Source: Prevotella sp.
GTDB taxonomy: Bacteria; Bacteroidota; Bacteroidia; Bacteroidales; Bacteroidaceae
NCBI GenBank assembly: GCA_017449025.1
Contig: JAFSKJ010000069.1
Span: 21,573-85,572 of the forward strand
DNA length: 64,000 nucleotides
Direction of reading: 5' to 3'
The position numbers and the translations under genes were made by a program. Shown one piece after another: positions 2-61,756 of this stretch. Numbering within the stretch: the stretch's first letter is position 1; the number at the start of each line of letters is the position of its first letter. Below the pieces are notes generated by a model. It searched no databases. It had not been told where the DNA came from and was given only the letters and a program-made list of their open reading frames with translations.

Positions 2-3000
2 GAGGTGGATAACGACACACACCTCAAATATACGGTGGCGGATAACGAAGTGACCATAACAGGTTTTGCCGACGGTTTTACGCCTGGCGCTAACTATGCG
101 CTGGTCATTCCCGACGTGATTGACGGTAAGCCCGTCGTGGCCGTTGGTGCTTCGGCTTTTATTGATAAGACCAACTTCACAACGCTGACCATCGGCAAGA
201 ATGTGAAGACCATCGGCACAGACGCTTTTCGTAGGACAACATCCATGACGAGTGTCACCTTTGCTCCCGATGGAGTGCTGGAGACGCTTGGCGAGAGTGC
301 CTTCCGCGGCTGTAGTGAACTGACAGCGTTTGTAATGCCCAATACCGTTACCACCATTGGCCAATACGCGTTGGCGGTTAATGCAAAGCTTGCCTCTGTA
401 ACATTGTCAAACCAGTTAACCACTCTCTCCACACAGGCTCTCTGCGACTGCCCGATGTTGAAGACCGTCGTAATTCCTGCTTCGGTCACAACGATTGAGA
501 GCAGGGCATTTAAGAACTATAGTGAAGGCCTTGAGGAAATTACCATTCCTTCGACCGTAACTTCTGTTGCGTCTGATGCTTTTTATATATGCAACAACTT
601 AAATACTGTTACATGGAACAGTGCTACGGTTCCTGAAAACATCTTTAAGGACAAAACGAGCCTTCAGACTGTTACCCTTGGCGAGGGCGTAAAAACGATA
701 GGCAGTAGTGCCTTCATGAACTGTACAGGACTGACAGATTTGAGTATCGCCAATACCGTGAAAACAATAAACGCCAGTGCTTTCTATGGCTGTACTGCGC
801 TTGGTAGCGTAACCATTCCTGCTTTAGTGTCAAAGCTGCCCAACGAAGTTTTTAAAGGCTGCACTTCACTGGCTTCTGTCTCATTTGCCGAAGGGTCGCT
901 GCTTACTCAGATGACTGTTGGTGTTTTCAGCGGGTGTAGCATGCTTAACAATTTTACGATTCCTGCAACCGTTAACTATATTGGCAGTGATTGTTTCTAT
1001 CAGTGCTCACAGCTTAAAAGTATTGTCATTCCTTCCAGCGTGACATATCTCGGCGTAAATGCCTTCAAGGAGTGCACAGCCCTCGAGAGCGCGACCTTTG
1101 GCCAAGGCATACAACTCGAAAACATCCCTGCAGGCTGCTTCCGTGGATGCTCCAGCCTTGTTGGAGTTGACATCCCCGCCTCCGTGAAGAGAATCGAGGG
1201 TGACACCAGTAATGGTGCATTCCAAATATCAGGTATCCAGTATGTCAATTTTGCGGAGAATTGCATTGTTGAACATCTGGGTACAAGTGCCTTCCGCGGC
1301 TGTGCCGAATTAACGGAATTTGTAATGCCCAATACTGTTACCACCATCGGTAACTACGTGTTGCAGGCAAATGCAAAGCTTGCCTCTGTGATATTGTCGA
1401 ACCAGTTAACCTCTCTCTCCACACAGGCTCTCTGCAACTGTCCGCTACTAACACATATTACCATTCCCTCAAGCGTCACCACTATCAATTACCAGGCCTT
1501 CTGGGATTGTACAGGTTTATCAGAGATAGTAATTCCCCATAATGTACATACACTAGGAGATAACCTGTTCAGAGAATGCAGTTCAAACTTGACTATTGAC
1601 CTCAGTGCTTGCTCAAATGTATGGGAGCTTTACAGTGGGAATACAAATGTTACGACAAAGTACAGCGTTCCTAATGGCGCAACCGTCATACTGCCACCAG
1701 GTTCCACAGCCACAGGCACGAACATACAAGTCACTAACCTTGGCACACTTGCGCAAGACAGCGAGGACTATTACCTGATAGGCTCCGCAGCAGACTTCAA
1801 TAAATTTGCTACTATCGTGCGCAGCAATCCGACAGCCAATGCACGCCTTACAGCAGACATCGAGCTCACAGGTGATGAACTGACTATCGGCCTCGGTACA
1901 GACGAAAGTAACTGCATCGCATATGGTGGCACATTCGACGGCCAAGGACACACCATTACCCTCAACTATACTGGCGCAAACAAGATTAACCGTTCCTATG
2001 GCGGTCTGTTTAGCTGGACAAATGGCGCAACCATTCAGAACCTCACAGTGGATGGCGCGATAGAAACCACGCAACCTAAAGTTGGCGGTATTGTCAGCGG
2101 CATCAAGGGCACACTTACCATGCAGAAATGCAAGGCTGCATCTACTATAACAGGTATTGTGGAAACGCTCACAGAAATGCACCTCGGTGGAATGCTCGGC
2201 TACACCCATTCGGCCGACATTACACTCACAGACTGCATGTCATGTGGAAGTATTATGGGAGGAAGCAACGTGAAGTTCTGCTCCGATTTCTTTGGACGCA
2301 TCACCAACGGCACCAAGGTAACGCTAAATTATAATCTTGCTATGACAAATTATGATTCACAGCTTGATTTTGTAGGTAGATTCTGGCTTGCCGACACATC
2401 TAATCCCACGAGCAACTATTCTGGGTCAGCCAATATCGTAGTAAATCAAGGTCAAAGTACAGGAGGTGGAATTGGCCATACTTCTACTGGTATAACAAGC
2501 CGTGCAACCCTTGCTCAGCTGGCTGACGGCACAGTAGCCTACAGACTACAGGCAGGTCGTACGGATTTGGTTTGGGGACAGCGCATAGGCACAGACACAG
2601 AGCCAGTGATGACCAATGATGAGAGCTACCGTGTTTACAGGTGTATTAATGGTGGTTATACCAACGACCCGACTTTGGCCTATGAAGGTTTGCAAAAGGA
2701 TGTGAACGACAATTATCTTCTCGGCTGCGTATTGGACTGGAAAGATTTCGCTGAAATTGTCAATAGCGGAACAAACAATACTGCCAATGCCAAGATGACG
2801 GCAGACATCGACCTCGGCGATGACCAGACGATGATAGGAACATCGGATGCTAAATATCAGGGCATATTCGATGGGCAGGGACACACGTTGACTGTCAACT
2901 GGACCACGACAGGTAATTATTGCGCTCCGTTTCCTTATATCAATGGCGCAACATTCAAAAATCTGCATGTGACAGGTACGATAAACACCTCACACCGCTT

Positions 3001-4246
3001 TACAGGCGGTCTTGTAGGTCAGTCCAAAGGAACAAGTTACATAAATAATTGTCGTTCAAATGTGGAGATGATTTCTTCATACAGTGGTGATGCCGTTCGC
3101 GGAGGTTTTGCAGCATCTGTCGAAGGGGGCACATTGAATTTCAACGACTGTATTTTTGATGGAAAATTTGAAGGTGCATCTTCGCAAACATGGGGTGGTT
3201 TTGTCGGATGGAGATATTCTGGTAGCGTCAACATTCAGAATGGTCTCTTTGTTCCGAAGAGTGTAAATGTTTCAGCTACATATTCTGCAACATTTTCAGG
3301 TAATGGCGGAACTGTTACTAACAGCTATTACACAGTTCAAATAAACAATAGCAACCAGGGAACACTCGTGTCGTCCGGGGAACTTACTGACGGCACAACA
3401 ACAACGGCACTGAATAATGGCCGCAGCGAGGTGTTCTGGGTGCAAGACGCAGTGACGAACATGCCGATGCTTGCAACCTTTGCAAATGCTGTCACGCTGA
3501 CTGACGTCAATGACCTCACGGCTCTGTCGGCTTACGCTGGGAAGACGTGCAAGGTGACCTACTCGCGCTCATTCACCGAGGCTAAGTCCTCAACGGTGTG
3601 CCTGCCGTTCGCATTTGCAAAGGGGAGCGTCGGCACGTTCTATACGTTTACGGGCATCACGCATGAAGGTAGCAACTACGAGGCCACGATGACGGAATAC
3701 ACGGGCGACAATCTGGTGGCCAACACGCCGTACCTGTTCACACCGTCGGCAACGGGCGACGTCGATTTCAGCGGCACGTACACGCTTCCTGCCAGTATCA
3801 CGGCAGGCTCGACCGAGAGCGGCGACTGGACTTACTTGGGAACCTACGAGACCATTTCATGGACGGAGGCTCCGACGGGCATCTATGGTTTCTCGGCACA
3901 GGCAGTGGAAGAGCAGGGCATCAGTCAGGGTCAGTTCGTGAAGGTGGGCGCATACGTTCGCATCAAGCCCATGCGATGCTACCTGAAGTATAAGAGTGGC
4001 TCAGCGAACTACGCCGGAGCCCGCGGCATGACCCGAGCTGCTGACGAGGAACTGCCTGAGACCATCAAGGTTCGCCTGATTGGTGCCGACGGCGAGGTGA
4101 CGGCCATCGGCAGCTTGCAGACGAAGACGGGCGAGGTGACTTTCGACAAGGACGCCTGGTACTCTTTGGACGGTCGCCGCATCGAGGGCAAGCCTACCGT
4201 GAAGGGTATCTACGTGAACAACGGAAAGAAGGTAATCATTAAATAA
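2..4246 (+). CDS. BspA-type LRR / GLUG-module surface protein, 5' partial
   Basis: The frame is open to the window edge, so the signal peptide and true start lie upstream; a GTG at 5 is only the first possible start codon seen. About residues 1-530 are BspA-type leucine-rich repeats (LRR_5) of the form I-x-x-x-A-F-x-x-C-x-x-L-x-x-V. Two beta-helix GLUG-like modules follow, each opened by a Y-Y-L-I-G / Y-L-L-G stretch and a D-W/F-x-x-F-A motif (about residues 588 and 904), then a beta domain from about 1180 and a C-terminal tail reading YSLDGRR ... GIYVNNGKKVIIK. BspA-type proteins are exported and in some species bind host proteins; the tail resembles a short type IX secretion sorting signal. 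A surface location is inferred. A small peptide gene follows 18 bases later. The LRR region contains an internal duplication (see findings). Confidence 0.88.
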   Translation, partial: EVDNDTHLKYTVADNEVTITGFADGFTPGANYALVIPDVIDGKPVVAVGASAFIDKTNFTTLTIGKNVKTIGTDAFRRTTSMTSVTFAPDGVLETLGESAFRGCSELTAFVMPNTVTTIGQYALAVNAKLASVTLSNQLTTLSTQALCDCPMLKTVVIPASVTTIESRAFKNYSEGLEEITIPSTVTSVASDAFYICNNLNTVTWNSATVPENIFKDKTSLQTVTLGEGVKTIGSSAFMNCTGLTDLSIANTVKTINASAFYGCTALGSVTIPALVSKLPNEVFKGCTSLASVSFAEGSLLTQMTVGVFSGCSMLNNFTIPATVNYIGSDCFYQCSQLKSIVIPSSVTYLGVNAFKECTALESATFGQGIQLENIPAGCFRGCSSLVGVDIPASVKRIEGDTSNGAFQISGIQYVNFAENCIVEHLGTSAFRGCAELTEFVMPNTVTTIGNYVLQANAKLASVILSNQLTSLSTQALCNCPLLTHITIPSSVTTINYQAFWDCTGLSEIVIPHNVHTLGDNLFRECSSNLTIDLSACSNVWELYSGNTNVTTKYSVPNGATVILPPGSTATGTNIQVTNLGTLAQDSEDYYLIGSAADFNKFATIVRSNPTANARLTADIELTGDELTIGLGTDESNCIAYGGTFDGQGHTITLNYTGANKINRSYGGLFSWTNGATIQNLTVDGAIETTQPKVGGIVSGIKGTLTMQKCKAASTITGIVETLTEMHLGGMLGYTHSADITLTDCMSCGSIMGGSNVKFCSDFFGRITNGTKVTLNYNLAMTNYDSQLDFVGRFWLADTSNPTSNYSGSANIVVNQGQSTGGGIGHTSTGITSRATLAQLADGTVAYRLQAGRTDLVWGQRIGTDTEPVMTNDESYRVYRCINGGYTNDPTLAYEGLQKDVNDNYLLGCVLDWKDFAEIVNSGTNNTANAKMTADIDLGDDQTMIGTSDAKYQGIFDGQGHTLTVNWTTTGNYCAPFPYINGATFKNLHVTGTINTSHRFTGGLVGQSKGTSYINNCRSNVEMISSYSGDAVRGGFAASVEGGTLNFNDCIFDGKFEGASSQTWGGFVGWRYSGSVNIQNGLFVPKSVNVSATYSATFSGNGGTVTNSYYTVQINNSNQGTLVSSGELTDGTTTTALNNGRSEVFWVQDAVTNMPMLATFANAVTLTDVNDLTALSAYAGKTCKVTYSRSFTEAKSSTVCLPFAFAKGSVGTFYTFTGITHEGSNYEATMTEYTGDNLVANTPYLFTPSATGDVDFSGTYTLPASITAGSTESGDWTYLGTYETISWTEAPTGIYGFSAQAVEEQGISQGQFVKVGAYVRIKPMRCYLKYKSGSANYAGARGMTRAADEELPETIKVRLIGADGEVTAIGSLQTKTGEVTFDKDAWYSLDGRRIEGKPTVKGIYVNNGKKVIIK

Positions 4247-4264: not shown

Positions 4265-4405
4265 ATGACTAAGAAAGAATACGAGAAGCCAACCGTGAAG
4301 GTGGTACAGTTGCGGCACCGTATTTTGCTGACCAGCGGAGCTAAAACGTTGTCGGGCAGCCAAGGCGCTACGCAGGAAGAGGACACTTGGTACGAACTGC
4401 AGTAA
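4265..4405 (+). CDS. Small YxxP-type peptide following tail protein (46 aa)
   Basis: A 46-codon frame starts MTKKEYEKPTVKVVQL, has an L-L-T-S-G core and ends in an acidic/aromatic stretch (EEDTWYELQ). It lies 18 bases behind the LRR surface protein and is preceded by a clear AGGAGG site eight bases before the ATG, which is unusual in this genome and supports translation. The same layout (tail protein, then a short M-x-K-x-Y-x-x-P peptide) occurs at 16918 and 59851. No signal peptide or membrane segment is visible. Function is unknown; co-expression with the upstream gene is inferred from spacing. Confidence 0.7.
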   Translation: MTKKEYEKPTVKVVQLRHRILLTSGAKTLSGSQGATQEEDTWYELQ

Positions 4406-12175: not shown

Positions 12176-13372
12176 ATGCAAAAAAAGATTTTCCCAATGC
12201 TCGCCCTGCTCTGCGCCGTCGTGCAGGGAGCAAAAGCCCAGAACGGATGGAGCGTCTGGGACGGTAGTGAAAAGAGCAAACCACAACATTACGACAGCTA
12301 TGCTGGCATCAGCGATGTTTACGTCATTAATAATGCTGCTGAACTGAAGTATGTATAGGATAATTTTGGGGATTTCTATGAAAAGAATTTATATCTGGGT
12401 AATAACATTGACATGACCGCCAAATCTTGGGAACCTTTAGTTTATGAGGATAAATCAGGTGGTTATTATTACGCATTCGAGGGCACGCTCTACGGCAATG
12501 ACCACACCATCCGCATCAAAATCGATAAAGCCGAGTACGAATTCCAGGGTCTGTTTTTTGCCATTAGCGAGAAAGGCAAGGTGCAGGACCTCCGCGTGGA
12601 CGGCACGATTGCTTGCCAAGCCAAGCATGTGGGCGGCATCTGCGGCGAGAACGATGGCACCATCAGCAGCTGCACGGTGAGCGCCAACGTTAGCAGCACG
12701 TCGCGTCTGGTGGGCGGCATCACCGGCCAGAACACCGGCGACGGCACCATCACCAACTGCTGGGTGAGCGCCGACGTCAGACGGCGGCGGCCACACGCTG
12801 ACGGCCAACATCAGCAGCACGGCACCACGCTCACCCTGACCTTCAGCGACCCCGTCAGCAAGCTTAAGGCCGGCACACCGTATATCATCAAGTTTACGAA
12901 GGACGCAAACTATGTGAACACCGACGAGTACAACATCGTCAATCCCATCTTCGAGGACGTGACCATCGACGCTACCGACCGCAGCTATGACAACGAGGCC
13001 GAGGGCGACGCCCAAGTCCGCTTCATAGGCACCTACGATGCCAAGACCTTCGGGGCTGAGGACAAGAGCATCCTCTTCATGGGCGGCTCGAACACCCTCT
13101 ACTATCCCCAGAAGGATGCCACCATCGGCGCCTGCCGCGGCTACTTCAAGATTGGCGAAGACGGGAGCGCGGGCGACCACGCCCGCATCACCGCCTTCAA
13201 CCTGAACTTCGGCGACGATGGGAGCACAATCGACCCCGCCGGCATCCATGCCATCGATGCGGGCGAAAGCGCTCCCCAAGGGTGGTACGACATGCAGGGC
13301 CGCAAGCTCATCGGCAAGCCCTCGCGCGCAGACGTGTATATATATAATGGTGTAAAGAGAGTGATAAAATAA
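12176..13372 (+). pseudogene. GLUG-type tail protein gene with in-frame TAG and internal junction
   Basis: Signal peptide MQKKIFPMLALLCAVVQGAKA, then a module opening (V-I-N-N-A-A-E-L-K-Y-V). A TAG at 12356-12358 interrupts, yet the same frame continues with expected sequence (L-G-N-N-I-D-M-T-A) and GLUG repeats to about 12775. There an arginine-rich junction suggests a deletion or frameshift, after which the domain shared with the 60031 protein resumes (T-P-Y-I-I-K-F ... R-G-Y-F-K-I) and ends in the common tail (WYDMQGRK ... YIYNGVKRVIK). TAG is an ordinary stop in neighbouring genes, so recoding is unlikely. Translation could restart at 12413, but without a signal peptide. Confidence 0.7.
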
Positions 13373-13382
13373 AACTAACAAC

Positions 13383-14259
13383 ATGAAACGAAAGATTTTT
13401 TTACTGATTGTGGCCGCTGCGATGGCTACCTTTAGCGCCCAGGCGCAGACAGACATCACGCTCGACGACGAGGCGATGTATTTTGAAATCGACGACCTGC
13501 CCAATGCCGTGAACTGGCTGCCGGCACCGCCCGAACCGAACTCCACGCAGTTCGCCTACGACCTTACGCAGTACATGTGGGGCAAGGGCGAGCGACTGAA
13601 CGAAGAGCGTGCCCGGCAGGCCATCGCCCACGGCGTGATTGACATGGGCGAGATGGCCAAGCAGTTCAGCGTGCCCTTTTGGCATGGAGATCTCCGAGGA
13701 GAAGACGCCCAAGATCTTCCATGTGCTTTACCGCGGCGTGCTCACCGTGCGCCTCTGCGCCAAAAAGCCCAAGACGGCCATGCCGCGCCTGCGTCCCTAC
13801 GTGCGCTACAATGAGTCCACACTGATTCCCGAGGACGAGGAGACGCTGCGCGAGAACGGCTCCTACCCCTCCGGCCATACCATCCGCGGATGGGCGATGG
13901 CCCTGCTGCTCTGCGAGATCAACCCCGCCGCACAGGACGACCTCCTGGCGCTCGGCTACCAGTGGGGACAGAGCCGTGCCATTGCCGGCTACCACTGGCA
14001 GAGCGACATCGACGCGGGCAGGCTGCTGGCCTCAGCAGGCTATGCGCGGCTCCACACCCATGAGGAGTTCCTGGCCGACATGGCCGCTGCCCGTGCCGAG
14101 TATGCACAGCTGGCGGGACAGTCCGTGGGTGTCGAGTCGGCCAAGGCCGCCGCTCCCGCCCCCTCTGCCGCCATCTACAACATGGCCGGCGAGCAGGTCA
14201 ACGAGGAGCCGCACACCGGCGTATATATATATAATGGTGTAAAGAGAGTGACAAAATAA
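13383..14259 (+). pseudogene. Class A acid phosphatase (PAP2) with tail, frameshifted
   Basis: The first reading has a signal peptide and runs to about residue 98; the second continues in another frame. Removing one T from the run at 13677-13680 restores a single protein of about 290 residues. It carries all three class A phosphatase motifs: K-x6-R-P (KTAMPRLRP), P-S-G-H (GSYPSGH) and S-R-x5-H-x3-D (SRAIAGYHWQSD). It ends with the shared tail form IYNMAGEQ ... GVYIYNGVKRVTK. Periplasmic or surface phosphate release is the expected role. It follows the preceding gene by 10 bases, probably one operon. The shift may be real decay or a sequencing error in a T-run. Confidence 0.75.
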
Positions 14260-14701: not shown

Positions 14702-16882
14702 ATGAAAAGAACTACTTTTTTCAAGTCGCTCCTCGTGGCAGCAGGGCTGTTCGTGGGGGCAAATGCGTGGGCAGGCGACAAGACTGTCGTAAAGTATAGT
14801 TTTGACGATGCTAACAGCCCGTCGCTGACGGCTGGCAGCCGTGTCACGCTGGACTACAGCCACACATCGGTCATCTCTAAAACGGCGTTCCTAAACATGA
14901 CTAACAATGAAAACGGCGCAGCCGGCTCTTCCACCATCTCGCTCGGAAACGAGGATTTGTCGGGCGAGACCTGGACGCTGACCTTTGAGTGGGCTGCCAA
15001 CGGCGGCTGTAACAGCAAGACAGGCTACACCTACCTGAAAGCCGGCGACACAAACCTTTTCGCCATCGTCGACAACTCCAACTGGAACACGGCAAACCAG
15101 CTGACCTACGGGTCATCGTCCGTGGATCTGAGCGTTCCCGGATGCAACAAGAGCAATCGCTTTGGAATAACTACTGCCGACCTCTACAACACCACCGCCT
15201 ACTGGTACCATTTCGTTATCACGGGTAGCGATGCTGGCGTGAAACTGACCGTTACCAATTCCAGTTCTGGAACTGAAATCGTGAAAGATGCTGTACTGTC
15301 GGAGACCAATGTCACCCCGACATCAATTGTTGCCAATCCCAGTTGTGGTGGTGCTTTAGGTTTTGACGAACTCTCTCTAACCTACTACGTTGAGGGTGAG
15401 GTTATCCAGACCCCAATAGCGACCTATACTGCTGTTGACGGCATCAACCGTACCATCACCGCTACTTGCGACACTGAGGGAGCCACTCTGTATTACTCCA
15501 CCGATGGTGAGAACTGGACCGAAGGTGTAGAGGCAACCGTCTCTGAGAGCGGCAAGGTCTATTTCAAGGCCGTAAAGGGCACCTCTGAGTCCGACGTGCT
15601 TGAGTTCGACGTTGTTGCTGGCGAGGCCATCGTGCTGAATGCTCCGGTCATCAACCGCACCAGCGACACATCTGTTACTATTTCTGCCGACCAGACCAAT
15701 CTGCTGCTGTCGCCGACGGCAACCATCTATTATGAATATGGTGAGGAGAGTGGCTCATTCACTGGCTCAAAGACGCTGACAGTGGAGGCTGACGCCACCA
15801 TCACAGCCTATGCTGAGGCTGACGGCTACACCACCTCTGAGACATCAGAGCGTGCCGTGGCCCTGTTCCCCACCACTGTCGAACAGATGGAGAACACTGC
15901 AGCCAAGACCTCTGGCTGGACTGACAATGCTTTCAGCGAAGAGACCATCACCGCCTCTGAGCGCACCTACGCAACTCTGCTGCTTGACAACACACAGTGG
16001 GGTAAGAACGTCTTCCTTCAGACCAATGGTGCATGGGGACTCCGCGCCTCCGGCAACTGGTATATCAACAGCGACACTCAGGAGTCGTGGTTGCTGATGC
16101 AGGACATGAAGGCTGGCGACATTATTGTAGTCAACGTTACCTATCCCGCCTCTTCTATGGTGAATGCCACATATTCTACCAAGTACACCTTCGGCACACT
16201 GCACGCTTACGAGGTGACAGAGGATGGCGACGTTGAGCTTGCTTTCAAGAAGATTAACGCAAAGACAATGGATTACATCTATGGTGTTTATTCATACAGA
16301 ATCGTTACATCCGTTCCCGCCGCCGTCACCTCTATAGGCTACGCCACATTCTGCTCTCCTTACGCCCTTGACTTCTCTAACGCCACAAGCATTGAGGCTT
16401 ACACGGCAAAGGTGGATGAGGATGGAAAGATTACGTTTACGAAAGTGAATACTGTAGCAGCTGGCGAGGGTGTGCTCCTGAAGAGCAAGGATGGTAAAGA
16501 AGCAGAAGAGGAAATTCCTGTGATAGCTTCTGCCGAGGCTAACGCCAACAACGACTTCGTTGGTATTCCCGAGACTGTTCAGCTTGCGCAGACTGCCGAC
16601 GGCGCCACCAACTATATATTGACCAAAGTTGACGACAAGCTTGGCTTCTACAAGGTCAATGCAAATGGTTCTTGGTGTAAGGGTGGTACTGCTTACCTGA
16701 AGGTATCGAGTGCTAAAGCCAGAGCATTCTATTCACTCGACAACGATACAACCACTGCTATCAGCGACGAGCTTGTTGAGACAGAGAGCGACGCTGCTGT
16801 GTTCAACCTCAACGGTCAGCGCGTGACTGCTCCGCAGAAGGGTCTTTACATCGTGAACGGCAAGAAGGTAGCGGTGAAGTAA
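14702..16882 (+). CDS. Exported multi-domain surface protein with C-terminal tail
   Basis: A 726-residue protein with signal peptide (MKRTTFFKSLLVAAGLFVGA...A). Residues 30-235 look like a lectin-type beta sandwich (K-Y-S-F-D-D-A near the start, F-D-E-L-S-L-T at its end). Two chitobiase/Fn3-associated repeats follow (about 236-390, with L-Y-Y-S-T-D-G-E-N-W and I-Y-Y-E-Y-G), then a second beta domain (about 395-540), a G-Y-A-T-F-C-S-P-Y-A domain (from 545) and the tail FNLNGQR ... GLYIVNGKKVAVK. No catalytic motif is seen, so carbohydrate binding or adhesion is the best guess. It has a strong promoter with a long leader, and is followed 35 bases later by a small peptide gene. Confidence 0.85.
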   Translation: MKRTTFFKSLLVAAGLFVGANAWAGDKTVVKYSFDDANSPSLTAGSRVTLDYSHTSVISKTAFLNMTNNENGAAGSSTISLGNEDLSGETWTLTFEWAANGGCNSKTGYTYLKAGDTNLFAIVDNSNWNTANQLTYGSSSVDLSVPGCNKSNRFGITTADLYNTTAYWYHFVITGSDAGVKLTVTNSSSGTEIVKDAVLSETNVTPTSIVANPSCGGALGFDELSLTYYVEGEVIQTPIATYTAVDGINRTITATCDTEGATLYYSTDGENWTEGVEATVSESGKVYFKAVKGTSESDVLEFDVVAGEAIVLNAPVINRTSDTSVTISADQTNLLLSPTATIYYEYGEESGSFTGSKTLTVEADATITAYAEADGYTTSETSERAVALFPTTVEQMENTAAKTSGWTDNAFSEETITASERTYATLLLDNTQWGKNVFLQTNGAWGLRASGNWYINSDTQESWLLMQDMKAGDIIVVNVTYPASSMVNATYSTKYTFGTLHAYEVTEDGDVELAFKKINAKTMDYIYGVYSYRIVTSVPAAVTSIGYATFCSPYALDFSNATSIEAYTAKVDEDGKITFTKVNTVAAGEGVLLKSKDGKEAEEEIPVIASAEANANNDFVGIPETVQLAQTADGATNYILTKVDDKLGFYKVNANGSWCKGGTAYLKVSSAKARAFYSLDNDTTTAISDELVETESDAAVFNLNGQRVTAPQKGLYIVNGKKVAVK

Positions 16883-16917: not shown

Positions 16918-17100
16918 ATGAAAAAGACATATATTGCACCTTCTGCATCGCAGCTTGAGGCAGAGATAGAAGCGCTCATGGATATAACGTCTATCAATTC
17001 AACACAGGCAGGTGAGGGTAGCGAAGGGAATCCCGTGAACTACTCTCGCGGCAACCACAGCGCATGGGAAGACGACGACTTTGACGACGACGACTTCTAA
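16918..17100 (+). CDS. Small YxxP-type acidic peptide (60 aa)
   Basis: Starts MKKTYIAPSASQLEAE, has a Ser/Gly-rich middle and ends in N-Y-S-R-G-N-H-S-A-W followed by ten residues that are all Asp, Glu or Phe. It is 35 bases behind the 726-residue tail protein and ahead of a strong terminator, so the two genes form a closed transcription unit. Similar short genes follow the tail proteins at 2-4246 and 60031-61560. No signal peptide. Function unknown; candidates are a co-regulated partner, a modified peptide precursor or an export helper. Confidence 0.75.
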   Translation: MKKTYIAPSASQLEAEIEALMDITSINSTQAGEGSEGNPVNYSRGNHSAWEDDDFDDDDF

Positions 17101-45743: not shown

Positions 45744-48700
45744 TTACTTAATCACGACTTTACTGCCATTATGTATGTACACTCCCTTCTCCGTCGGGCG
45801 GTGAGGCAGCTTCACGCCACTGGTAGAGTACCACTGGCCCTCGTCGTCGCCGCCGAGTATGAAGCTGATGTCCGTCGGAGTGCCTTCAGTGAAGCTGAGC
45901 ACTGTGGGCTGGTCGGGGCTGCCCACCACGGCATCGGCGCTGAAGGTCATGGTCTTCGGGGTGGAGGCCACAATCTTGCCCTCGCGTGCTATGGCAAAGC
46001 GAACGGCGGCCGCATCGTCGCAGCCTATGCTCAGGTAGAGAGGCTCCGTGGCCTCAGCGGCCTCAGTGGTCTTGTCCACAACGGCTTCGCCCACCATTTC
46101 GCCTCCGGGTATGTAGGCCACAACCTTGTCGCCATCCTGCAGCTCAACGCCTGCCACGGTGGCCGAGACACTCATCGTGTGGCGGGCCTGCGAAGCAGCG
46201 GCACTGCTCCTGGCACCCAGCGACCAGTCCTCGTGGAAGTTGCTGTCCAACTCGAAGAACGGATAGGAGAACGATGCTCTTGTGGCGCCCTTGCGCAGCA
46301 ACATGTAACCCTCGCCGGGCTTCATATACTGCAGGCTGCCGCGCCAGCGTCCGGTGTTGCCCGACTTGGTGAAGTAGGCAAACTCGGTGTGGCTCTTTAT
46401 CACGTCGCCCTGCTGTGCATAGTCGTAGTAGTCGCTCAGGGCAGTCTCAACGGTCAGGTTGGTCATTGGCGTGTAGCCGATGGCGTTCCACCCCTGCTTA
46501 ACAGTGATGGTGCGGTCGGCCTTCTCCTTGACCACGGTGCCGCCGATGGGGAATGTGCAGTCCTTCTGCACCTTGATGGCGTATGCCTTCTTCGGAGATA
46601 TGGACAGTCCCTGCGTGCTGCCTTTTGCTATCCAGCGCTTTTTCTTATAGGTCAGCGTCATGTCGCTGCCCATGTCGGTAAGTATGTCGCCATTGCTCCA
46701 CGGCATGCTGCTGAGCAGCTTGTTAACGTCGTTCAGCTGGTCGCTGCTCACGTTGAACGATACCCAGTTCCAGCCCTCCTTGAGGGAGAAGTTCTGAACG
46801 AAGGCCTCGCCGCCGTCGAAGCGAACGGGAGTGTCGGTGCCCAGCACGCCAGACTTCTGGAACGTGATGGCCTGGTCGGGCGTCAGCACTATCTCACGAC
46901 CGGTGCTGTACTGCCACAGGCGGAAGTTCAGCTCGCGGCCACTGGCCTGGTTGTCGTAGATTGTCAGGTACAGGCCGTTCTCGCCGGTCTGCACATTGTG
47001 GCTTATATTGGCGAAGCCGTGGCATACGTTCTCGTTGTCGAACACGCCCACAATGTCGCGCGAGTCGGTGTCAAGCTCACCGTACAGGTACACCTGTCCG
47101 CTTATGCTCATCGAGTTCTGCAGCAGGCTGCGGTCAATGGTGTCGGCCCACTCAGGCTGATCGCCCTCGATGGTCAGGTTCAGGTAGAACGGCTCGGTGA
47201 TGCCATCCTCGTCGGTAAGATAGAGTATTTCATTATACGTACCGATGTTCAGGTCCTTGCTCACCGTGGCAGTGACATAGTCCATGGTCTGCGGGGCTAT
47301 AGCGTCGCTATACTTGCTCAGCTTAAGCCAGCGCGGGCAGTTCTCTATGGTGTAGGTGTGGCTCTGTGCACCGTTGTTGTAGAACGGCAGCTCAGTGCCC
47401 TCGCCGCTACCATACTTGATAGTAGCATCGAACCTGTTCACCAACCACTGCAGGCTGCTGTTGGTAACATAGTAGCAGGCCGTCTGCGGCGATGCCATGG
47501 TGTTGCCGTTCAGGTCCTCTATGTCGCGCAGCGTCACGTAGATGTTGCGGTGGTTCAGCTTGGCGTTAGACTCGTCGAGTTCCACCAGCACCTGGTTGCC
47601 GCGGCCTATGAACGAGAACTTCAAGTTCGTCACCTCCTCGTAGGGCACCACGGGTGCAGACTGCGTCTTGTCGAAGTGCGTCAGCACCACTTCCTCATCG
47701 TCCACGAACAGGTAGTCGCGCACCAGGGTGTCGGTGGGCTTCTTAGTCTCCGGGTCGAGTTGGTAGCGGGGCTTGCCCTGGTCGTCCAAGTAGAGTTTCT
47801 TGCTGTAGACGTAGGGCACCAGCTCTATGCTGTTGTCCTTCTGGCGCTCCTGGCGGTCGAACGGCAGGTAGGTCAGCAGGCCGGCCTCGTCGCCGTTGGG
47901 GCTCTTGGTGGCGTAGGTGTCCACAAGCCTCTCAGGCAGTGCCTGGGCGAAGAACATCAGTTCGTCCACATTACCCTTCAGCGGGGTCAGGCCGTCCTGT
48001 CTCAGCAGGGTGTCCTTCTCGTTCACCACGTCGTAGCGGCTGGCACCGATGAGCGGATAACCGCCGCTGATGCCGCCGAGCGAGTCGGTCTCGAAGGTGG
48101 TGCGCAGTTCCTTATCCACGTAGATGTTGGCCACGCTGCGGCCGCGGTTAACGGTCATGGCGTAGTGGTGCCACTGGCCGTCGCTCCAGTCGCCGGGCAC
48201 CTCAGTGGCAAAGCCGTTGGAGCGGTACATCAGCTTGTCGCCCTCGAAGCCTATGTGGAACTGGTTCTCGGCGCCGTTGTCCTCCTTCAGTCCGCGACCG
48301 TTGGAGAGCAGCGTGCCGCGGCCCTCGGCGTCGGTCTTGAACCAGAACATCAGCGTGTAGTCCTGCTCGTCAGTGCGGTTGATGGCGTTCTTGTCAAGCT
48401 GTACGCCCTTGTCAGCCTTCTCCAAGTGGAGCGACAGGCCCTGCGGTATGGCCCAAGAAGCGCCCATCAGCTTGGCGTTGGCACCCTGGGTGTGGTCGAT
48501 GACATAGTCGCCCGAGCCCTCGTTCATCGGGTAGTAGTCCACGAGGTCCTTCTCATAGCCCGTCAGGTGGTGTCCGCCGTAGGTCGAGCCGATGAGTGTG
48601 CCGTCCATGGCATTGTACCACAGGCGGGCCTCCATCATGCAGCCCTCGTAGAACGTGCTCTCGCTGCGGTCATGCTCGTTGGTGCGTCCGAAGATGAGCG

Positions 48701-51700
48701 GACCCGTGCCGTAGTAGAGCGACGTGAGCTTCTGGCGGCCCACCTCCACGCCACCGTGGTAGAGGGTCATCACGCTGTCGGTCTGGTTCAGCACTAAAGC
48801 CACCTGCTGGAAGATGTTCTTAGGCATTTCCACGTTGGCCGTCAACGTCTGGTCATTCACCACGGCCTTCAGCTTGAAGTCAGAGGTCAGCCACAGCTGC
48901 AGCTTCTGGCCGTTGGAGCCATGCGAGAAGAGAGGCATCTCCTTGCCCGTCTCAGTGGGCTTCACCATCAGGTCGATGGTCACGCTCTTGCCGCTGAAGT
49001 TGCGCTTGGCCTCGCTCTCCACGCTGGCCGTAGCGCCGTCGAACTGCACACTCACCATCTCCGACAGCGAGTTGTTGTTCACCTCGCCCTTCACCTCGAA
49101 GTTGGTGATGGCGCTCAGGTAGTTGTATTCAATGTCCTCAGAGAAGTTGAACACTATGTCGTCGCCGGCGGTCAGCAGGCCGCTCTTCGGTTCGGGTGTG
49201 CCGAACAGCTGCGGACGGCGCGTGTCCTTGATGCCGCTGATGACCTTCGACGACGTGGTCAGGAAGTCATTGCCGTTGCGGCAGAACAGCACGGCACGCA
49301 GGTCGTAGCTGCGCTCCATCACCCAGCCCTCGCCGTAGAACTGCGTCACGATGTTGCCGTTCTCAGGTATCAGCTCCCTCACGCCGTTGGCCATGGCCAT
49401 CAGCGAGTCGCTGGCGTAGTACGAGCAGAGGTTCGTCCACGAGTCGTCGCCACGCTGAGACTCCTTGTACTGGAACTCAATGTGGTCGAAGTTGTGCTGA
49501 TGGCGGTCGAAGCCGTTGATGGTCACGGGGATGTACCAGCCGAGCTTGCCGTCCTTCTGGGCGTTGGTGTTCAGTACCCACTTGTCGCCCGGCGTTGCGA
49601 TGGCCACGCCGCCCGCCTCGCGCAGGAAGTGGACATCGAACGTGGTCATGGCGTAGGTGTGCTCAGCGTCGGTGGGCGACATCACACCAATGACCAGGCC
49701 CTCATAGTCGAAGCCCTGACCGGCGCGTACCTCCATCTGCAAGGCCGTCTCAGTGCCGGAAGTGCACGTGACGGTCATGCCGGCGGTGGTCAGCGTCTGT
49801 CCGTTGATGCTGATCTTCGCGCCCTGCGGGTTCAGCTGGTCGGGAACGAACACTTGCAGCAGCGTCAGGCCGTCGGTGGCCTCAGGCTTCTCGCTGTCGT
49901 TGCCCACATAGACGGTGAACCGGGCAGCGTCGTCGATGGCCACGCCGCTCACGCTCTGTTTGTCCAAGCGAATCTTCGGGTTCACAATCTTCAGTGTGCG
50001 GGCGTCGAGCTGAGTACCCGGGCTATAGACCTTCGTCACGCGCTGGTCCTCCCACGGGTTCTGTGTGGCACCGGCAATGGTGCGGAAGATGAAGCCGCGC
50101 GGACCGTTGATATTCACAGCCTTGAGCGACTGGCTCACCTGATCTGACACCATGTCATAGAAACTGTTGAAGTTGTCGTTCGTGAAGACGTTAGTAACAG
50201 GCACATCTTTCGACTGGTCGGAGCCGTCGTAATATGCGCGATAGACATCGACATTCAGGTGACTCGCCGGGTCGCAGGCAATGGTGAACGACTCTGTGCG
50301 GTTGTACGAGCGAGCCTCTGAGTCGGCACCAACAGAGGTGTAGGAGGCTATGGGGAACAGCGACCAGCGGAGATACTTGCCTGCGAAGGTAACCGAAGAT
50401 GACGTACCATCGTCTAAGTCCATGTGTACACCCGATACCGTCGGGGTTGCCCATGCATTCATTTCTTTCAACGACAGGGCTATCGCGCTGGCAAACGAAC
50501 CTGCTATGCCGATTGCCGAGAAGGCTTGGCTGGCACCCGCGCCCAGTCCGAAATAGTCAACCTCGGTAGCGATGGGGAAGTAGTTCGACCACGACGACGA
50601 GTAACTGGCGTCGAAGGTCTCGCTGTAGTTCACGCCTGCAGCACCGGCCACGTCGAAGTTGTTCAACTTGTCGCGGGCATGCAGTTTCTCGGACTCGTTC
50701 TGGGCTATCATGTCTGCCCAGGCCTTGATAATCTGGTACTTCTCGCCCACCTCGTCGCTGAAGTCTTCCTCTGCAGCGTGCGTAGGCAGCACCACCAAGT
50801 AGTTGATGCCCGGTTGGGGCGTGTCGATGGTGGTGTTGTAGGCGTGGCCGTCGATCTTCTTGTTGACCACGGCAAACGTAGAGTCGGTAGGCATGCGTAG
50901 CGACAGATAGACGGGCTTCTGCGTATTGTCGGCTATCGTCTGCGCCTCCTCCTTCGTACCAAGGTACATCAGGTCGATAATCTCCTTCGCCTTGGTGGGG
51001 ATAATCTGCGTCAGCAGTTGCTTCTGCGAATAGATGAAGTTCGACTGAATCTTCGGGCCGTAGCCTAAGGCCAGGTCGCGAATAAGGTGGATGGTGTCGC
51101 CCTTGGCGTCAAGGCCAGAGGCTATCACCGACACCGTGCCATAGTCGGCGTACTTGCCCACTTCAGACTCCACCTTCGTCTTGCTCAGATACTGGATGTT
51201 GTCCTTGCCTAAGCGGGCAGCCATACCCTTCAGCATATCGTTGGTCACAGCGCGGATGGTGGACATGGGTTTCACCACCACGTTCTGCACAGAGCCGATG
51301 TAGAGGTCGGCATCGGCACCCACCATCGACGGGTCGCCACTGGTACTCACGTTGTTGCCCACGACCATCGTGTGTGAGAAGGCCTTGCTGCCGCTGCCGT
51401 TATACACGAACATGTCGATATTCGAATCGGACTGGTCGGCACCGTGGATAGGACCTACGGCAGTACCTATACCTTCTGGCGCTAATACTTGAGCCGTCAC
51501 GGTCTCCAGTTTGTCACCCACCTTGAGGTTGGCGAAGAGTCCGGCCGCCAGTGACAGGTTCATCATGTACGAATAGTTGATGGTAGCGCCCTTGGCCAGC
51601 GTGTTGGTGCTGTAGGCTCCTGGCGGGTCGCGCAGGATGTCGTAGAGGATGGGAGCGCCCTCGGTCATGATGTCCTGGCCGGCACCCACGGGGAACATGT

Positions 51701-54700
51701 TCATCACGTAGCCTTGCAGCGGCTCGGCCTGGATGAAGGTGCCGTCGCGCTCAACGGTGAAAGTCACCGTGCGCAGACAGTAGCTCATGTTCGAGGTCTG
51801 GTCGGCCTTTAGGGTGAAGACGCACTGTCCCAGGCTGTCCAGCTTCTGAGGCTCCTTGATGGTGTTCTGGTCATCAAACGACATTGCCCTCATGCCGTTC
51901 TGCATGTAGGCCACGCCGCCCTTCAGCGGCACCATATCTGCACGGCCCAGCGGGTCGTTGTTGTACTGGTAGCGCTCGCCCACCTGCAACTGGATGTTGT
52001 ACTTGCGCCCTATGCTGAACACGGGGTATCCGAAAGTGTAAGTGGGATAGTTGGCAAGAACAGGCTCTGGACCATGGTCGTCTGTGGGCTTGGAGTCTAT
52101 ATTGCCACGACAGGTCAGCGACAGTTCGCCCAACTGTAACTCGTACCCCTCGTATGTTCCAATATTCCCCCACGTGGTGCTGAGAACTTCGAACCGGAAG
52201 AACTGGCAGAAGCTATGGTCGGGCACATCAAAATTATACGTTTTGAGGTTGTAGGCACCCATGCCTGCATCGGCAGTTTCCATCAGCACTGTCCATTCAT
52301 CACTTTCGGTGGCACGCCCTAACAGGCGCATGGCCTTGGGGTTGCGCCCATCGTATGTCTGTGTGTCATCGCCTGTGGTCAGGTCGAGCGTACTGAGGCT
52401 GACGAGTTTGTCGGTCTTGAAAGTAACCCACCACCCGCAATCATCGGAGACAACACACCATTTGGTGTTTGGATTGCCATCGAACAGGTTCTCATACGAA
52501 TCGTTGCCGCTCTTCACATGGCTTGCGTCTTGCGGCGTAATATTCGGAGTATGGGTGTATTTTTCAAACGGGTTGATATAATTGGTATATCCCGCTATAG
52601 TCTGATATACAAGGGGTATCTGCGTCACCTCGCCCGTCAGCTCGGTAGCGGCGTAGGTCTTGTCGCCGAAGTAGTCGAAGCTGTCGTAGCCCACCTGCTT
52701 GTAGGTTACTTCCACGGGGCTGTGGTAGATGCGGTTATACACGGCGTGATACTTGGCCGTGGGGTTCTCCACGCGCTCCTCGTCAGCGTCGTAGTAGATG
52801 CCGTCGTAGCTGACCTTCAGCGTGTCGAGGCAGTCGGTCAGGTCGATGACCTCGCTCACCTGTCCCTCCTGGAACAGCGTGGGATAGCCTTTGCAATATA
52901 CCTGCTGCACCTTCCAGCGCACGGGCGGCAACTGCAGCGTATATTCGCCCGTCGTTGCGTCGGGCCATACGGTCATGCGCTTGCGCTCCGTCTTCACCGT
53001 GGTGTAGTGCTTGTCGCCGTTGCGCGGATGGCGCACCACCTCCTCGCGCTCGGTGCGGTTGGGGTGCTGGTTGTCATAGACCAGCCACGACGTGTTGTCG
53101 CCCTCAAGGGTAAGCACTACGGTCAGCGAGTCGCCTAAGTTGTTCTGCGACAGGTTGTTCAGCAGGGGCTTCTGACCCTGGTCGTCGCCGCCGACCACAC
53201 GGCCTGTCAGCGTCACCTTCGTGGCATCGTAGAAGTAGATGCCGGCCACGTCGGCGGTCAGGTTCTGCTTCTGGCTGTTCTTATACCAGCCGTCGTTGGT
53301 GAAGACGTGCTTGTCCATCACGGCCTGGATGGTGTGCTGGCCGTCGAGCACGCGGAACGAGAACGAGCCATCGTAGTCGGTCTCCACATACTTGCCTTGG
53401 GCATTGTGGATGCGGTTGCCATCTACCAGGAAGTTGACACCCTTCACAGGGATGCTCGTGCCGTCGTACATCACGTAGCCTGAGAAGCGGCGACCGTTCT
53501 CGATGGTGAACTCGCGCAGCGTCACGTTGTTGCTCGTAGCGTCGAAGGTCACCAGCATGGGATCGATGTTGATGCCGCTCTCGGCCACGGGGCCTACACT
53601 GTAGGTGGCCGCTGTCTGGCCCTGGTACGACAGTTCGTCTTGCTCGAAGTAGCCACTCTCGTCGGTCTGCACGCGGGTCACCTCATTGCCGTCATAGTTG
53701 ATGGCCACCCAGATGCCGGGCGCGCCGGTGCCGTCGTTGAAGCGCACATAGCCCTCCACGCGGCCGGTGTGCTTACACTCGCCCACCTTCACCTCGGTCT
53801 CGGTAGTGGTGATGCCCTCGCAGTCGTTCACGGCCTCCACCTTATATTGATACGTAAGCAGTGGCGACACGCTCGTGTCCTCGTAGCTCAGGTCGGTCAG
53901 GCCCGTAGCCACTTCCTGCCACTGGTCGTCACCCTGACCCACCACGCGGCGCAGCACGCGGAAGTAGTCAATAGGCTTGTGGTCGGTGTCCCACGACAGC
54001 AGCACGCTGCTCTGCCGCGTCGTCGTCATCAGCACGGAGTCTATCGTTCCCGTGTTCTTATGGTAGAACAAGCCCTTCAGGTTCGGGTCGTTGACGGTGG
54101 CGTACTCCTGGTATTCCACCGTAGTCGTGGCGGGCACAAGATTGTCGCCCTCCATCGTCCAGCCGCTGCTGAAGTAGTGGGCCAGGTCTTCATCCGTGGC
54201 ACCGATGATGCTACTATTCAATACAGGCAGCACTTTGCCGTCTCCCACATACCAGCCAGTGCCCAACCTCGAGGCCAAATCGCTTGCTGACAGGGAGCCT
54301 ACACTGTTCCACAATTCGCGTCTGGGCATCTTGGGCCGCGCATCATTGCCATCCGCATACCAACCATCGCCCAGTTTCTGAACCATCTCTGACACATTGG
54401 AGACGGCTTTGTCGATGTCGTACCACTCGTCCCTGTCTCCGTAGGAATAGTTATTGTCGCTGACACCGTTATTACCAATACGCTGTCTTCCCTCAAAACC
54501 GAGTGCTCTGGCACCCACGTAGTAATAGTGTCCGTTTTCCAGACAATTGGTTATCGTAGCAAAACCAATGTCGCCTGCATAGCCGATGAATGCTCCTACG
54601 TAGGAGTTATCACCGACTGCTCCATCGTTACCGGCACTGATGGCACCGTCGAACAGACAGTTGTTGATGGTGTGCTGAGTATCATGTCCGTGGCCGATAA

Positions 54701-59850: not shown

Positions 59851-60018
59851 TTATCGCAGGTCGTCTGTGTCGTCCACGCCGTTGCTGTCAAAGGAGAACC
59901 CTTCGCTATTGCTAACGCTATTCACAGCTCTGCCGCTGCCGCTAACCGTCAGCATCTGGTTTGCGGCCTGTAGCCTGACGACCAGGATCTTGGGTTTTGT
60001 GTATGTTGTCTTCTTCAT
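59851..60018 (-). CDS. Small YxxP-type peptide following tail protein (55 aa)
   Basis: Starts MKKTTYTKPKILVVRLQ, has an L-T-V-S-G-S-G core and ends S-N-G-V-D-D-T-D-D-L-R. It begins 12 bases after the stop of the GLUG tail protein at 60031-61560 and is in the same unit. It shares the N-terminal pattern (K-x-x-Y-x-K-P-x-x-x-V-V-x-L) with the peptide at 4265 and the acidic end with the one at 16918. Function unknown. Confidence 0.75.
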   Translation of the reverse strand: MKKTTYTKPKILVVRLQAANQMLTVSGSGRAVNSVSNSEGFSFDSNGVDDTDDLR

Positions 60019-60030
60019 TTTGTTGTTCTT

Positions 60031-61560
60031 TTACTTAATTATTACCTTTCGTCCATTGTGGATATACAGCCCAGCCACCGTCGGCTGTCTGTTGAGCCTG
60101 CGACCGTCGAGAGAGTACCATGCATCGGAAGCAGTGTGATCCGTGAAATACGTTGTTGTTATTCCCGTATCCTCGCCGTCGCCGAAGTCGAGCACGAAGC
60201 TGCGGACAGCCTTGCTGCCGTCGGTGGCGACAGGAATCTCGAAGTAGGCGCGGAAGGCATTCAGCATAGGTGTTGCATTGTCCTTGGCATACCCCAGCTT
60301 GTTGCCGGATGTTAACAGCAGGATTTTGTCACGGTTGGTGTCGTTGATGGTCAGCGGAGAATAATTGCCCTTGAACGTGCCGCCCGTGAAGCTGACATCC
60401 GTTGGGATATTGGTGTTGGCGATGGTTACACCGCTGAATACTGGATTATCAATAGTATTGTTGATGGTGGCCATTATAGGCACGGCGTAGTTGCCACTGG
60501 CTTGCCAGTTGCTTGAGCCAAGGGTTGAAACAAGGCCGGAGGTTGATTCATTGCTCTTCTGATAGCAGTTCGTTTCCGTATTTGTGCCATTACCCTGAAT
60601 CATGCTGACCGTTCCAGTAGTGTTGTATGTTCCGTTAGCCAGACAATTGCTTATGGTAGTTGTGACACCAGAGTCTGACCAGCCGCAGATGATGCCCACA
60701 GCTGCAGAACCACCAGTAATAGTGCCAGAGTAAAGGCAGTTAGTGATAGTAGTATTTGACTGACCAGATGCCTGGGCGAACCCGAGCACTCCTGCACAGT
60801 GGTCCCCAGAGTTGCAAGTCACGTCAACAGCCACCTCACAATTAGTGATGGTGTTGGTGCTGCCGAAGGCAAATCCTACCAGTCCGGCGCAGTGAAGGGC
60901 CCCATTCACGCTGCCTGTCACCTTCAAATTCTTGATGGTTGCATCTTGGATGCAGAAGAAGGGAGCCACGCCTTGGGCTGAGTTATCCTGAATGTCACAG
61001 GTGATGGTGTGGCCACCGCCGTCGAATATACCCTCGAAGGACTTGTCTGTAGTTCCCACCATATTACCTTCTATATCGATGTCGTCAGCAAGAAGCACAG
61101 TCATTCCTTCGTAAGTATTGCCCTCAGACACATTATTAGCAAACGTGTTCCAGTCTGCTGCCGATCTTATGGTGAAGTAATTGTCCCACCTCACGATATA
61201 CGGCTTGCCAGCCACGATAGCTCCTACAGTATTGAAGTTCAGTGTCAGCGTACCGTAATTGTCCAGGTTCGACGTAGTAAGGAGTTCCTTGATGGTAGCA
61301 CCGTGAAGGGGGTGCGATTCAACGTCAATCTGTGCTTTTGTCACGCCGAACGGCAGGCACAACGTGTTCCAGTCGCCATCGCGGTAGAGGGTGCGGCCGC
61401 TGAGTGTCACATTACATTTATTTCCAGCGTTCGAAGAAATTGCCGAACTGTTGTCTCTACTACAGTTGAACGACAAATCAGTTTGTCCCCATGTCACTTG
61501 TGCCCCGACAACCATCAGGGCGAGGATTGAGAAGCGTTTAAGTCTTTTAAGCTTTTTCAT
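60031..61560 (-). CDS. GLUG-module exported tail protein
   Basis: A 509-residue protein. The start at 61560 gives a signal peptide (M-K-K-L-K-R-L-K-R-F-S-I-L-A-L...W-G-Q); the frame is open further up only through the direct-repeat array. Order: beta domain with W-N-T-L-C-L-P-F-G-V (about 60), module opening R-S-A-A-D-W-N-T-F (about 130), GLUG beta-helix repeats (150-300), the domain N-P-V-F-S-G-V-T-I ... R-A-Y-F-E-I (from about 373), and the tail WYSLDGRR ... GLYIHNGRKVIIK. Closest relative in the window is the broken gene at 12176. Surface adhesin or binding role is inferred. Small peptide gene follows. Confidence 0.85.
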   Translation of the reverse strand: MKKLKRLKRFSILALMVVGAQVTWGQTDLSFNCSRDNSSAISSNAGNKCNVTLSGRTLYRDGDWNTLCLPFGVTKAQIDVESHPLHGATIKELLTTSNLDNYGTLTLNFNTVGAIVAGKPYIVRWDNYFTIRSAADWNTFANNVSEGNTYEGMTVLLADDIDIEGNMVGTTDKSFEGIFDGGGHTITCDIQDNSAQGVAPFFCIQDATIKNLKVTGSVNGALHCAGLVGFAFGSTNTITNCEVAVDVTCNSGDHCAGVLGFAQASGQSNTTITNCLYSGTITGGSAAVGIICGWSDSGVTTTISNCLANGTYNTTGTVSMIQGNGTNTETNCYQKSNESTSGLVSTLGSSNWQASGNYAVPIMATINNTIDNPVFSGVTIANTNIPTDVSFTGGTFKGNYSPLTINDTNRDKILLLTSGNKLGYAKDNATPMLNAFRAYFEIPVATDGSKAVRSFVLDFGDGEDTGITTTYFTDHTASDAWYSLDGRRLNRQPTVAGLYIHNGRKVIIK

Positions 61561-61574
61561 CTTCCGTTTATTTA

Positions 61575-61756
61575 TTTCCGTTAATTTTCGCACAAAGTTA
61601 ATGAATATTTTCCAAACTGCAAAGGCAAAAAGACGTCTCATCGCAATTTTTGCAGATTTTGAAAGAGATTTTGCATATTTTGAAAGTCGATTGCATATTT
61701 TGAAAGTCGATTGCATATTTTGAAAGTCCAATCTGTCGTTGAATGGTTACGACAAC
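61575..61756 (-). promoter_or_regulatory. Promoter, direct-repeat array and family D hairpin of the GLUG gene
   Basis: On the minus strand: family D hairpin (61734-61756), then four copies of TTTCAAAATATGCAA (at 61711-61725, 61691-61705, 61671-61685 and 61650-61664, the last with one change), spaced 20, 20 and 21 bases; then TTTG, 19 bases, TAACTTTG (about 61593-61600), a good promoter. The order is the same as at 11892-12075. Confidence 0.7.

What the first reader, a model, noticed from the sequence alone, without database searches (positions are those of the whole stretch)
16918..17100. Tail-protein plus small YxxP peptide: a repeated two-gene cassette
Three tail proteins (ends 4246, 16882, 60031) are each followed within 12-35 bases by a 46-60 residue peptide gene in the same direction. 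The peptides share M-x-K-x-(x)-Y-x-x-P, a hydrophobic core often ending S-G, and an acidic/aromatic end (E-D-D-D-F..., E-E-D-T-W, V-D-D-T-D-D-L). They differ strongly in the middle. The constant pairing suggests a functional link such as export, modification, or a peptide signal. Standard annotation usually calls these hypothetical or misses them.
Basis: partly seen in the sequence, partly recalled or inferred. Interest (0 to 1): 0.8.

Follow-up and report, generated by a model that had tools for sequence, protein, structure and literature searches.

The report
Precursor peptides paired with surface proteins
Short peptide genes sit next to genes for secreted surface proteins in this Prevotella-like bacterium and its relatives, and comparison suggests that they are raw material for a peptide-processing pathway, each peptide matched to its own surface protein.

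Summary
Three genes with a T9SS-like tail end at 4246, 16882 and 60031; 46-60 aa MxKxYxxP peptide genes start 18, 35 and 12 bp later. Not chance: 55 of 74 distinct peptides in fetched same-genus loci and 12 of 13 inspected in another family follow tail genes, and 13 of 14 usable close pairs have dN/dS below 1. Tails as such are not the partner (3 of 7 in the window, 17-19 of 96 in the genome). The partner is an un-annotated ~230-residue domain X before the tail: copy numbers of peptide and domain correlate over 151 genomes (rho 0.84). In genomes without SprA, peptides precede lipoprotein genes instead (14 of 15 parsed), and 8 of 18 listed PqqD genes lie within 10 kb of a peptide (0.38 expected), 6 of the 8 beside an HPr-kinase-like gene. 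The leader carries the Y-x-x-P-x-hydrophobic motif of lasso precursors, but lasso peptidase is nearly absent. Best reading: RiPP-type precursors served in trans by a PqqD/HprK/S26-like module. Modification, cleavage and export are inferred.

The parts
16918..17100 (+). YxxP precursor-like peptide 2 (60 aa): leader MKKTYIAP...LMDITS, acidic WEDDDFDDDDF end
14702..16882 (+). partner protein 2 (726 aa) with signal-like N-terminus, domain X and tail
16208..16771 (+). domain X of partner 2 (residues 503-690)
   Evidence: 74.6 bits, E 1.2e-18
4265..4405 (+). YxxP precursor-like peptide 1 (46 aa)
5..4246 (+). partner protein 1 (BspA-type LRR_5 repeats, domain X, tail); frame is open to the window edge, so the gene probably starts upstream
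3326..4129 (+). domain X of partner 1 (residues 1108-1375)
   Evidence: 66.8 bits, E 2.3e-19
59851..60018 (-). YxxP precursor-like peptide 3 (55 aa); lacks the C-terminal W
60031..61731 (-). partner protein 3 (TTG-start ORF of 566 aa; the real start may be the later MKKLKRLKRF)
60148..61488 (-). domain X of partner 3, in two pieces split by an insertion (residues 82 to 528)
   Evidence: E 7.0e-23 and 7.6e-19
12413..13372 (+). fourth domain-X and tail protein of the window, with no peptide behind it

Best explanation
The small genes encode RiPP-type precursor peptides. Shown by sequence comparison: a conserved N-terminal leader (MKK-x-Y-x-x-P-x-hydrophobic ... L-L-x-x-S), a variable middle and an acidic C-terminus usually with W-D/E; no Sec-like hydrophobic stretch; one gene per partner, next to a surface-type protein (domain X plus T9SS-like tail where SprA is present; a lipoprotein where it is not). 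Inferred: the leader is bound by a PqqD-type recognition protein encoded elsewhere in the genome (own genome: contig C19), an HprK-like kinase of the same cluster modifies the peptide (phosphorylation by analogy with lasso kinases), an S24/S26-like peptidase removes the leader near the L-L-x-x-S site, an ABC exporter carries it out where one is present, and the mature peptide acts on or with its own surface protein, most likely through domain X.
For: Leader information content high from Y-4 to Y+20, low beyond (91 peptides); Y at 0, P at +3 and L/I/M/V at +5 in 62 of 91, the spacing of Tyr-17/Pro-14/Leu-12 needed for B1 recognition (PMC10368454, passages). PqqD within 10 kb of a peptide for 8 of 18 listed PqqD genes in 12 peptide-bearing genomes without a SprA hit, 0.38 expected. 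Same-strand clusters: PqqD-HprK-peptide-lipoprotein (L269), peptide-lipoprotein-PqqD (L267, L268), HprK-S26-PqqD-NTase-ABC-peptide (L273), peptide-lipoprotein-HprK-PqqD-NTase (L274). HprK found in 14 of 16 fetched PqqD loci (6 of the 14 seeded the profile, 10 of the 16 were fetched because a peptide was near), HprK-S26-PqqD together in 9 of 16 including the own genome. PqqD in 104 of 109 peptide-positive genomes, 32 of 42 others. Domain X: 16 of 17 paired against 6 of 31 testable unpaired; copy numbers rho 0.84 over 151 genomes, 0.79 within 111 SprA-positive. Core distance follows domain X distance (r 0.46, n 66; 0.15-0.21, p 0.0007-0.004 after thinning), leader distance not after thinning (p 0.10-0.66). 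Purifying selection.
Against: No maturation gene lies beside the window's three cassettes; in genomes with T9SS the module is in trans. Five of 109 peptide-positive genomes have no PqqD hit (G253, G265, G286, G325 with 16 peptides, G328 at 95% completeness) and 32 of 42 peptide-negative genomes have one, so presence/absence is a weak link. In G192, G196, G220, G280, G312 and G317 no listed PqqD is near a peptide. HprK and S26 reach no curated cut-off. 20 of 91 leaders have T at Y+5. Within the own genome (n 14) leader correlates with domain X as well as core does (0.57 and 0.50), as plain co-duplication would give.
Confidence: 0.6

Rival explanations
1. The peptide is an unmodified cytosolic helper (chaperone, pilot or expression regulator) of the surface protein encoded beside it.
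For: No Sec-like hydrophobic stretch (max 12-residue hydropathy median 0.83); tight coupling to the partner (median gap 23 bp, three 4-bp overlaps); partner-specific cores.
Against: Does not explain the YxxPx-hydrophobic leader or the 8 of 18 PqqD genes near peptides; the position changes from behind the partner to before it.
Confidence: 0.18
2. The peptide is exported unmodified or merely trimmed, as a bacteriocin or signalling peptide with a GG-type leader.
For: High copy number (up to 26 per genome), variable cores, ABC transporter next to the peptide in L273; peptidase-containing transporters go with GG-leader precursors in Bacteroidales (PMC10352776, passages).
Against: No GG site: the leader ends with S in 83 of 91 (within Y+18 to Y+21), and most frequent residues at Y+19/Y+20 are S. 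Does not explain one-to-one pairing with domain X.
Confidence: 0.1
3. They are lasso-peptide precursors.
For: Same leader motif and spacing; PqqD, HPr-kinase homologue and nucleotidyltransferase are also lasso cluster genes (PMC8498205, PMC10368454, passages).
Against: Lasso leader peptidase family PF13471 is above cut-off in only 2 of 151 genomes and absent from the own genome; no cyclase-like gene was recognised in the module loci by the scans made (not every gene scanned).
Confidence: 0.02
4. The pair is a secreted toxin with its small immunity protein, or another conflict system.
For: Paired genes, diverse partners, hypervariable middle.
Against: Partners carry LRR, fn3, cohesin, carbohydrate-binding and similar domains, no toxin domain among the 25 families shown; all peptides share leader and acidic end, unlike immunity proteins.
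Confidence: 0.04
5. The short frames are not translated and only mark a conserved 3' element of the tail genes.
For: Small size, none in Pfam or NCBIfam above cut-off.
Against: dN/dS below 1 in 13 of 14 usable pairs; same family placed before lipoprotein genes; conserved amino-acid motifs at both ends.
Confidence: 0.02

Closest known systems
Phosphorylated lasso-peptide systems with PqqD-type B1, HPr-kinase homologue and nucleotidyltransferase (paeninodin, pseudomycoidin, bsf cluster; PMC8498205 and PMC10368454, passages seen)
   Same: Leader Y-x-x-P-x-hydrophobic with the same spacing; PqqD protein; HprK-like kinase; nucleotidyltransferase and ABC exporter in some loci.
   Different: No lasso leader peptidase (PF13471) in most genomes; an S24/S26-like peptidase instead; precursors scattered in up to 26 copies, each beside a surface protein; acidic C-terminal end.
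HprK_rel_A (TIGR04352) and SynChlorMet ScmC (TIGR04249) kinases
   Same: Best NCBIfam matches of the kinase, P-loop region.
   Different: Far below cut-off (25.6 against 200 bits; 29.1 against 125).
Type IX secretion cargo with C-terminal sorting domain
   Same: Tail with LDGR...GLYIxNGKKVxxK, SprA in the genome.
   Different: Window tails do not match Por_Secre_tail at E<=1; the peptide follows domain X rather than the tail; peptides also occur without SprA.
GG-leader RiPPs and bacteroidetocins of Bacteroidales (PMC10352776, passages seen)
   Same: Short precursors without Sec signal.
   Different: No GG site, no PCAT beside the window genes, pairing with surface proteins.

Membership tests
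RiPP precursor (general) | short gene with conserved leader and variable core | tested here: met
   information high to Y+20, low beyond, 91 peptides
RiPP precursor (general) | physical link to a recognition element or modifying enzyme | tested here: met
   8 of 18 PqqD genes within 10 kb in genomes without SprA hit; not met at the window's own loci, where the module is on another contig
RiPP precursor (general) | a post-translational modification of the core | not testable with these tools
   needs mass spectrometry
Lasso peptides | YxxPxL leader motif | tested here: met
   Y and P by construction of the set, L/I/M/V at +5 in 62 of 91 (L itself in 8)
Lasso peptides | B2 leader peptidase (PF13471) | tested here: not met
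   none in the own genome, over cut-off in 2 of 151
Lasso peptides | asparagine-synthetase-like cyclase | not tested
   no genome-wide search made; none recognised in the module loci
GG-leader bacteriocins | GG or GA cleavage site | tested here: not met
   S most frequent at Y+19 (36 of 91) and Y+20 (44 of 91)
HprK_rel_A kinase TIGR04352 | score over curated cut-off | tested here: not met
   25.6, 20.2 and 20.7 bits against 200
PqqD family PF05402 | score over curated cut-off | tested here: met
   48.4 and 41.5 bits against 23.4; 136 of 151 genomes
T9SS cargo (partners) | Por_Secre_tail match | tested here: not met
   no PF18962 hit at E<=1 for the three window partners
T9SS cargo (partners) | T9SS translocon in the genome | tested here: met
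   SprA TIGR04189 in the own genome; other components not searched

The most novel reading that the evidence does not exclude
A one-to-one ligand and receptor (or cofactor) system on the Bacteroidota cell surface: a single kinase-type RiPP module in trans processes up to two dozen different precursors per genome, and each mature peptide fits only the domain X of the surface protein encoded beside it, giving these adhesin-like proteins exchangeable peptide parts.
Probability: 0.22. Interest if true: 0.92.

Novelty: new variant of a known kind. Interest (0 to 1): 0.76.

Why it matters
If right, many hypothetical or un-annotated small genes of Prevotella-like and Bacteroides-like gut bacteria become precursors of one processing pathway (589 profile matches in 109 of 151 sampled genomes), domain X becomes a named target for structure work, and a cluster of unknown function (HprK-like, S26-like, PqqD) gets candidate substrates. 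It would link peptide modification with surface display, a combination that the searches made here did not bring up.

Tried and rejected
Tail as the partner: rejected, since most tails lack a peptide. Lasso peptides: rejected. Cis-acting leader peptide: rejected, since the gene lies behind the partner in one lineage group and before it in another. Pfam enrichment of partner architectures gave mixed adhesin-like and enzyme-like domains and no clean split. Solved structures: no relative of domain X (best E 0.29); for the kinase only P-loop matches, best PEP carboxykinase E 0.0077. Order-wide scan: 4 of 149 genomes, own included. Named relatives: one locus, 24 residues matched, uncultured Prevotella RUG759. 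Literature: brought up no description of this pairing in their listings; one search gave no paper, and one search was too loose to tell anything. Only open PubMed Central papers are held.

Dropped or partial sets: A3 used 64 of 80 cluster representatives of 91 peptides; A7 used 34 of the 43 proteins of A5, 7 of 30 loci gave no usable peptide frame; the G150 count covers 13 of 22 hits; domain scoring stopped at 18 per genome; the listings were cut off. My note says 12 of 13 peptides behind tails; the recount is 11 of 12.

Full report
Observation. In the own genome the leader pattern occurs 19 times against 6 for the reversed control; 12 of the 19 encode family-like peptides and 11 of these 12 follow a tail gene. 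A tail profile built from the three window tails finds 117 places at E<=1, of which 96 distinct tail ORFs were recovered with flanks. 17 have a peptide, 18 or 19 with two variants. So the cassette is real but belongs to a minority of tail genes.

Conservation. With a profile of 18 own-genome peptides, 37 of 40 same-genus genomes have matches, 0 to 25 each. In fetched loci 55 of 74 distinct peptides have a tail gene within 450 bp upstream (median gap 23 bp, three overlap by 4 bp), 4 more lie at a contig edge, and at least one 'no' (L120) looks like a tail missed by the expression. In G150, of another family, 12 of 13 inspected peptides follow a tail gene. dN/dS is below 1 in 13 of 14 usable pairs. 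Family-wide 109 of 151 genomes have the peptide, order-wide 4 of 149.

The partner is domain X. The paired proteins align over about 230 residues just before the tail (WNTLCLPF ... AGxPYLIK ... FxGTY ... RAYF ... ETTGI). No Pfam family matches it in more than 1 of 34 members and no solved structure does. A profile from 43 paired proteins of other genomes finds it in 16 of 17 paired own-genome proteins and in 6 of 31 unpaired ones with enough sequence, 48 being untestable. One of the six, L030, turned out to carry a variant peptide. All three window partners have it. Of 24 strong domain places in the own genome, 15 have a clear peptide, 16 with L259, and 8 do not, two of these with a broken tail. 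Over 151 genomes copy numbers correlate with rho 0.84, and 0.79 within SprA-positive genomes; 97 genomes have both, 12 the peptide only, 9 the domain only, 33 neither. The genomes are related, so these p-values overstate the case.

Second context. SprA is found in 111 of 151 genomes; 97 have peptide and SprA, 12 peptide only, 14 SprA only, 28 neither. Among the peptide-only genomes plus G094, 14 of 15 parsed peptides lie 3 to 58 bp (one with an unclear start) before an ORF with a lipoprotein-like N-terminus, and 8 of 8 in G196 and G317 follow tails, so the SprA call there may be a miss. Of 23 such downstream proteins (10 of them from the own genus), 4 match Mfa_like_1, 2 LRR_5, 2 DUF4969 and 1 Fimbrillin_C: fimbrillin-like is a fair word for some of them only.

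The processing module. PqqD is found in 136 of 151 genomes, in 104 of 109 with the peptide and 32 of 42 without. In the 12 peptide-only genomes 8 of 18 listed PqqD genes lie within 10 kb of a peptide, 0.38 expected. Fetched loci show same-strand clusters: L269 PqqD-HprK-peptide-lipoprotein; L267 and L268 peptide-lipoprotein-PqqD; L273 HprK-S26-PqqD-nucleotidyltransferase-ABC-peptide; L274 peptide-lipoprotein-HprK-PqqD-nucleotidyltransferase; L270, L271 and L275 PqqD-nucleotidyltransferase-HprK with polysaccharide-export genes and the peptide 6-7 kb on. HprK-S26-PqqD together is seen in 9 of 16 loci, own genome included. The kinase has an invariant GKSGTGKST-type P-loop (12 sequences); the S26-like protein keeps GxSM and HR motifs in most rows of the alignment (that these are catalytic is recalled). 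PqqD, the nucleotidyltransferase and the ABC transporter pass Pfam cut-offs, HprK and S26 do not. The ABC transporter was scanned in L273 only; in L279-L281 it is judged by likeness.

Leader and core. In 91 peptides Y and P are fixed (they defined the set), K at Y-3 in 86, L/M/I at Y+16 in 85, and information drops after Y+20. L/I/M/V stands at Y+5 in 62. [quoted passage not shown] PMC8498205, passages). 81 of 91 have W within the last 16 residues, usually followed by D or E.

Matching. Over 66 pairs core distance follows domain X distance (r 0.46), more than leader (0.23) or tail (0.13 against core) does. After thinning to 49, 40 and 25 pairs the core link stays (0.195, 0.147, 0.206; p 0.0007, 0.002, 0.0043) and the leader link goes (p 0.10, 0.32, 0.66); the tail also follows domain X at the first two levels. 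In the own genome alone leader and core follow it alike. The effect is weak but points at core and domain X as the matched parts.

Judgement. Real conserved gene pair with domain X: close to certain. RiPP-type precursor served by the PqqD/HprK/S26 module: likely (about 0.6 to 0.7). The nature of the modification, cleavage site, exporter and what the mature peptide does: inferred only. Lasso membership fails on the peptidase test.

Noticed in passing
window 14379 +, 17224 -, 39350 -, 61826 +: An exact 24-mer GGCTGTATGGCTGGCTACTCCTAT occurs four times (0 expected), an interspersed repeat that yields false MAGYSYxxP frames.
   Followed up: partly
window 13383-14259 +: A gene that looks like a PAP2-type acid phosphatase with a tail is split over two frames (13383-13814 and 13639-14259), as by a frameshift; the family name is from reading the sequence, not from a scan.
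   Followed up: no
window 45744-57917 -: Giant 4057-aa ORF with a T9SS-like tail and no peptide behind it.
   Followed up: no
L259 (G000 C85): Peptide-like frame RRKYMTPACMAVSVRSTLMLTNS... overlapping a tail gene end without an ATG in the right place, either an unusual start codon or a decayed copy.
   Followed up: partly
L270, L271, L275: PqqD-nucleotidyltransferase-HprK genes stand inside polysaccharide-export loci in three genomes, upstream of peptide and lipoprotein genes.
   Followed up: partly
G261 C6 229795 and 231579: PqqD cluster lies within about 2 kb of SprA in this genome; similar closeness is suggested in G331 and G235 by their coordinates.
   Followed up: no
G191 C1 287251-289795, G218 C3 863193-863803: The only two over-cut-off lasso peptidase hits (PF13471) lie beside PqqD genes, so true lasso clusters exist in a few relatives.
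   Followed up: no
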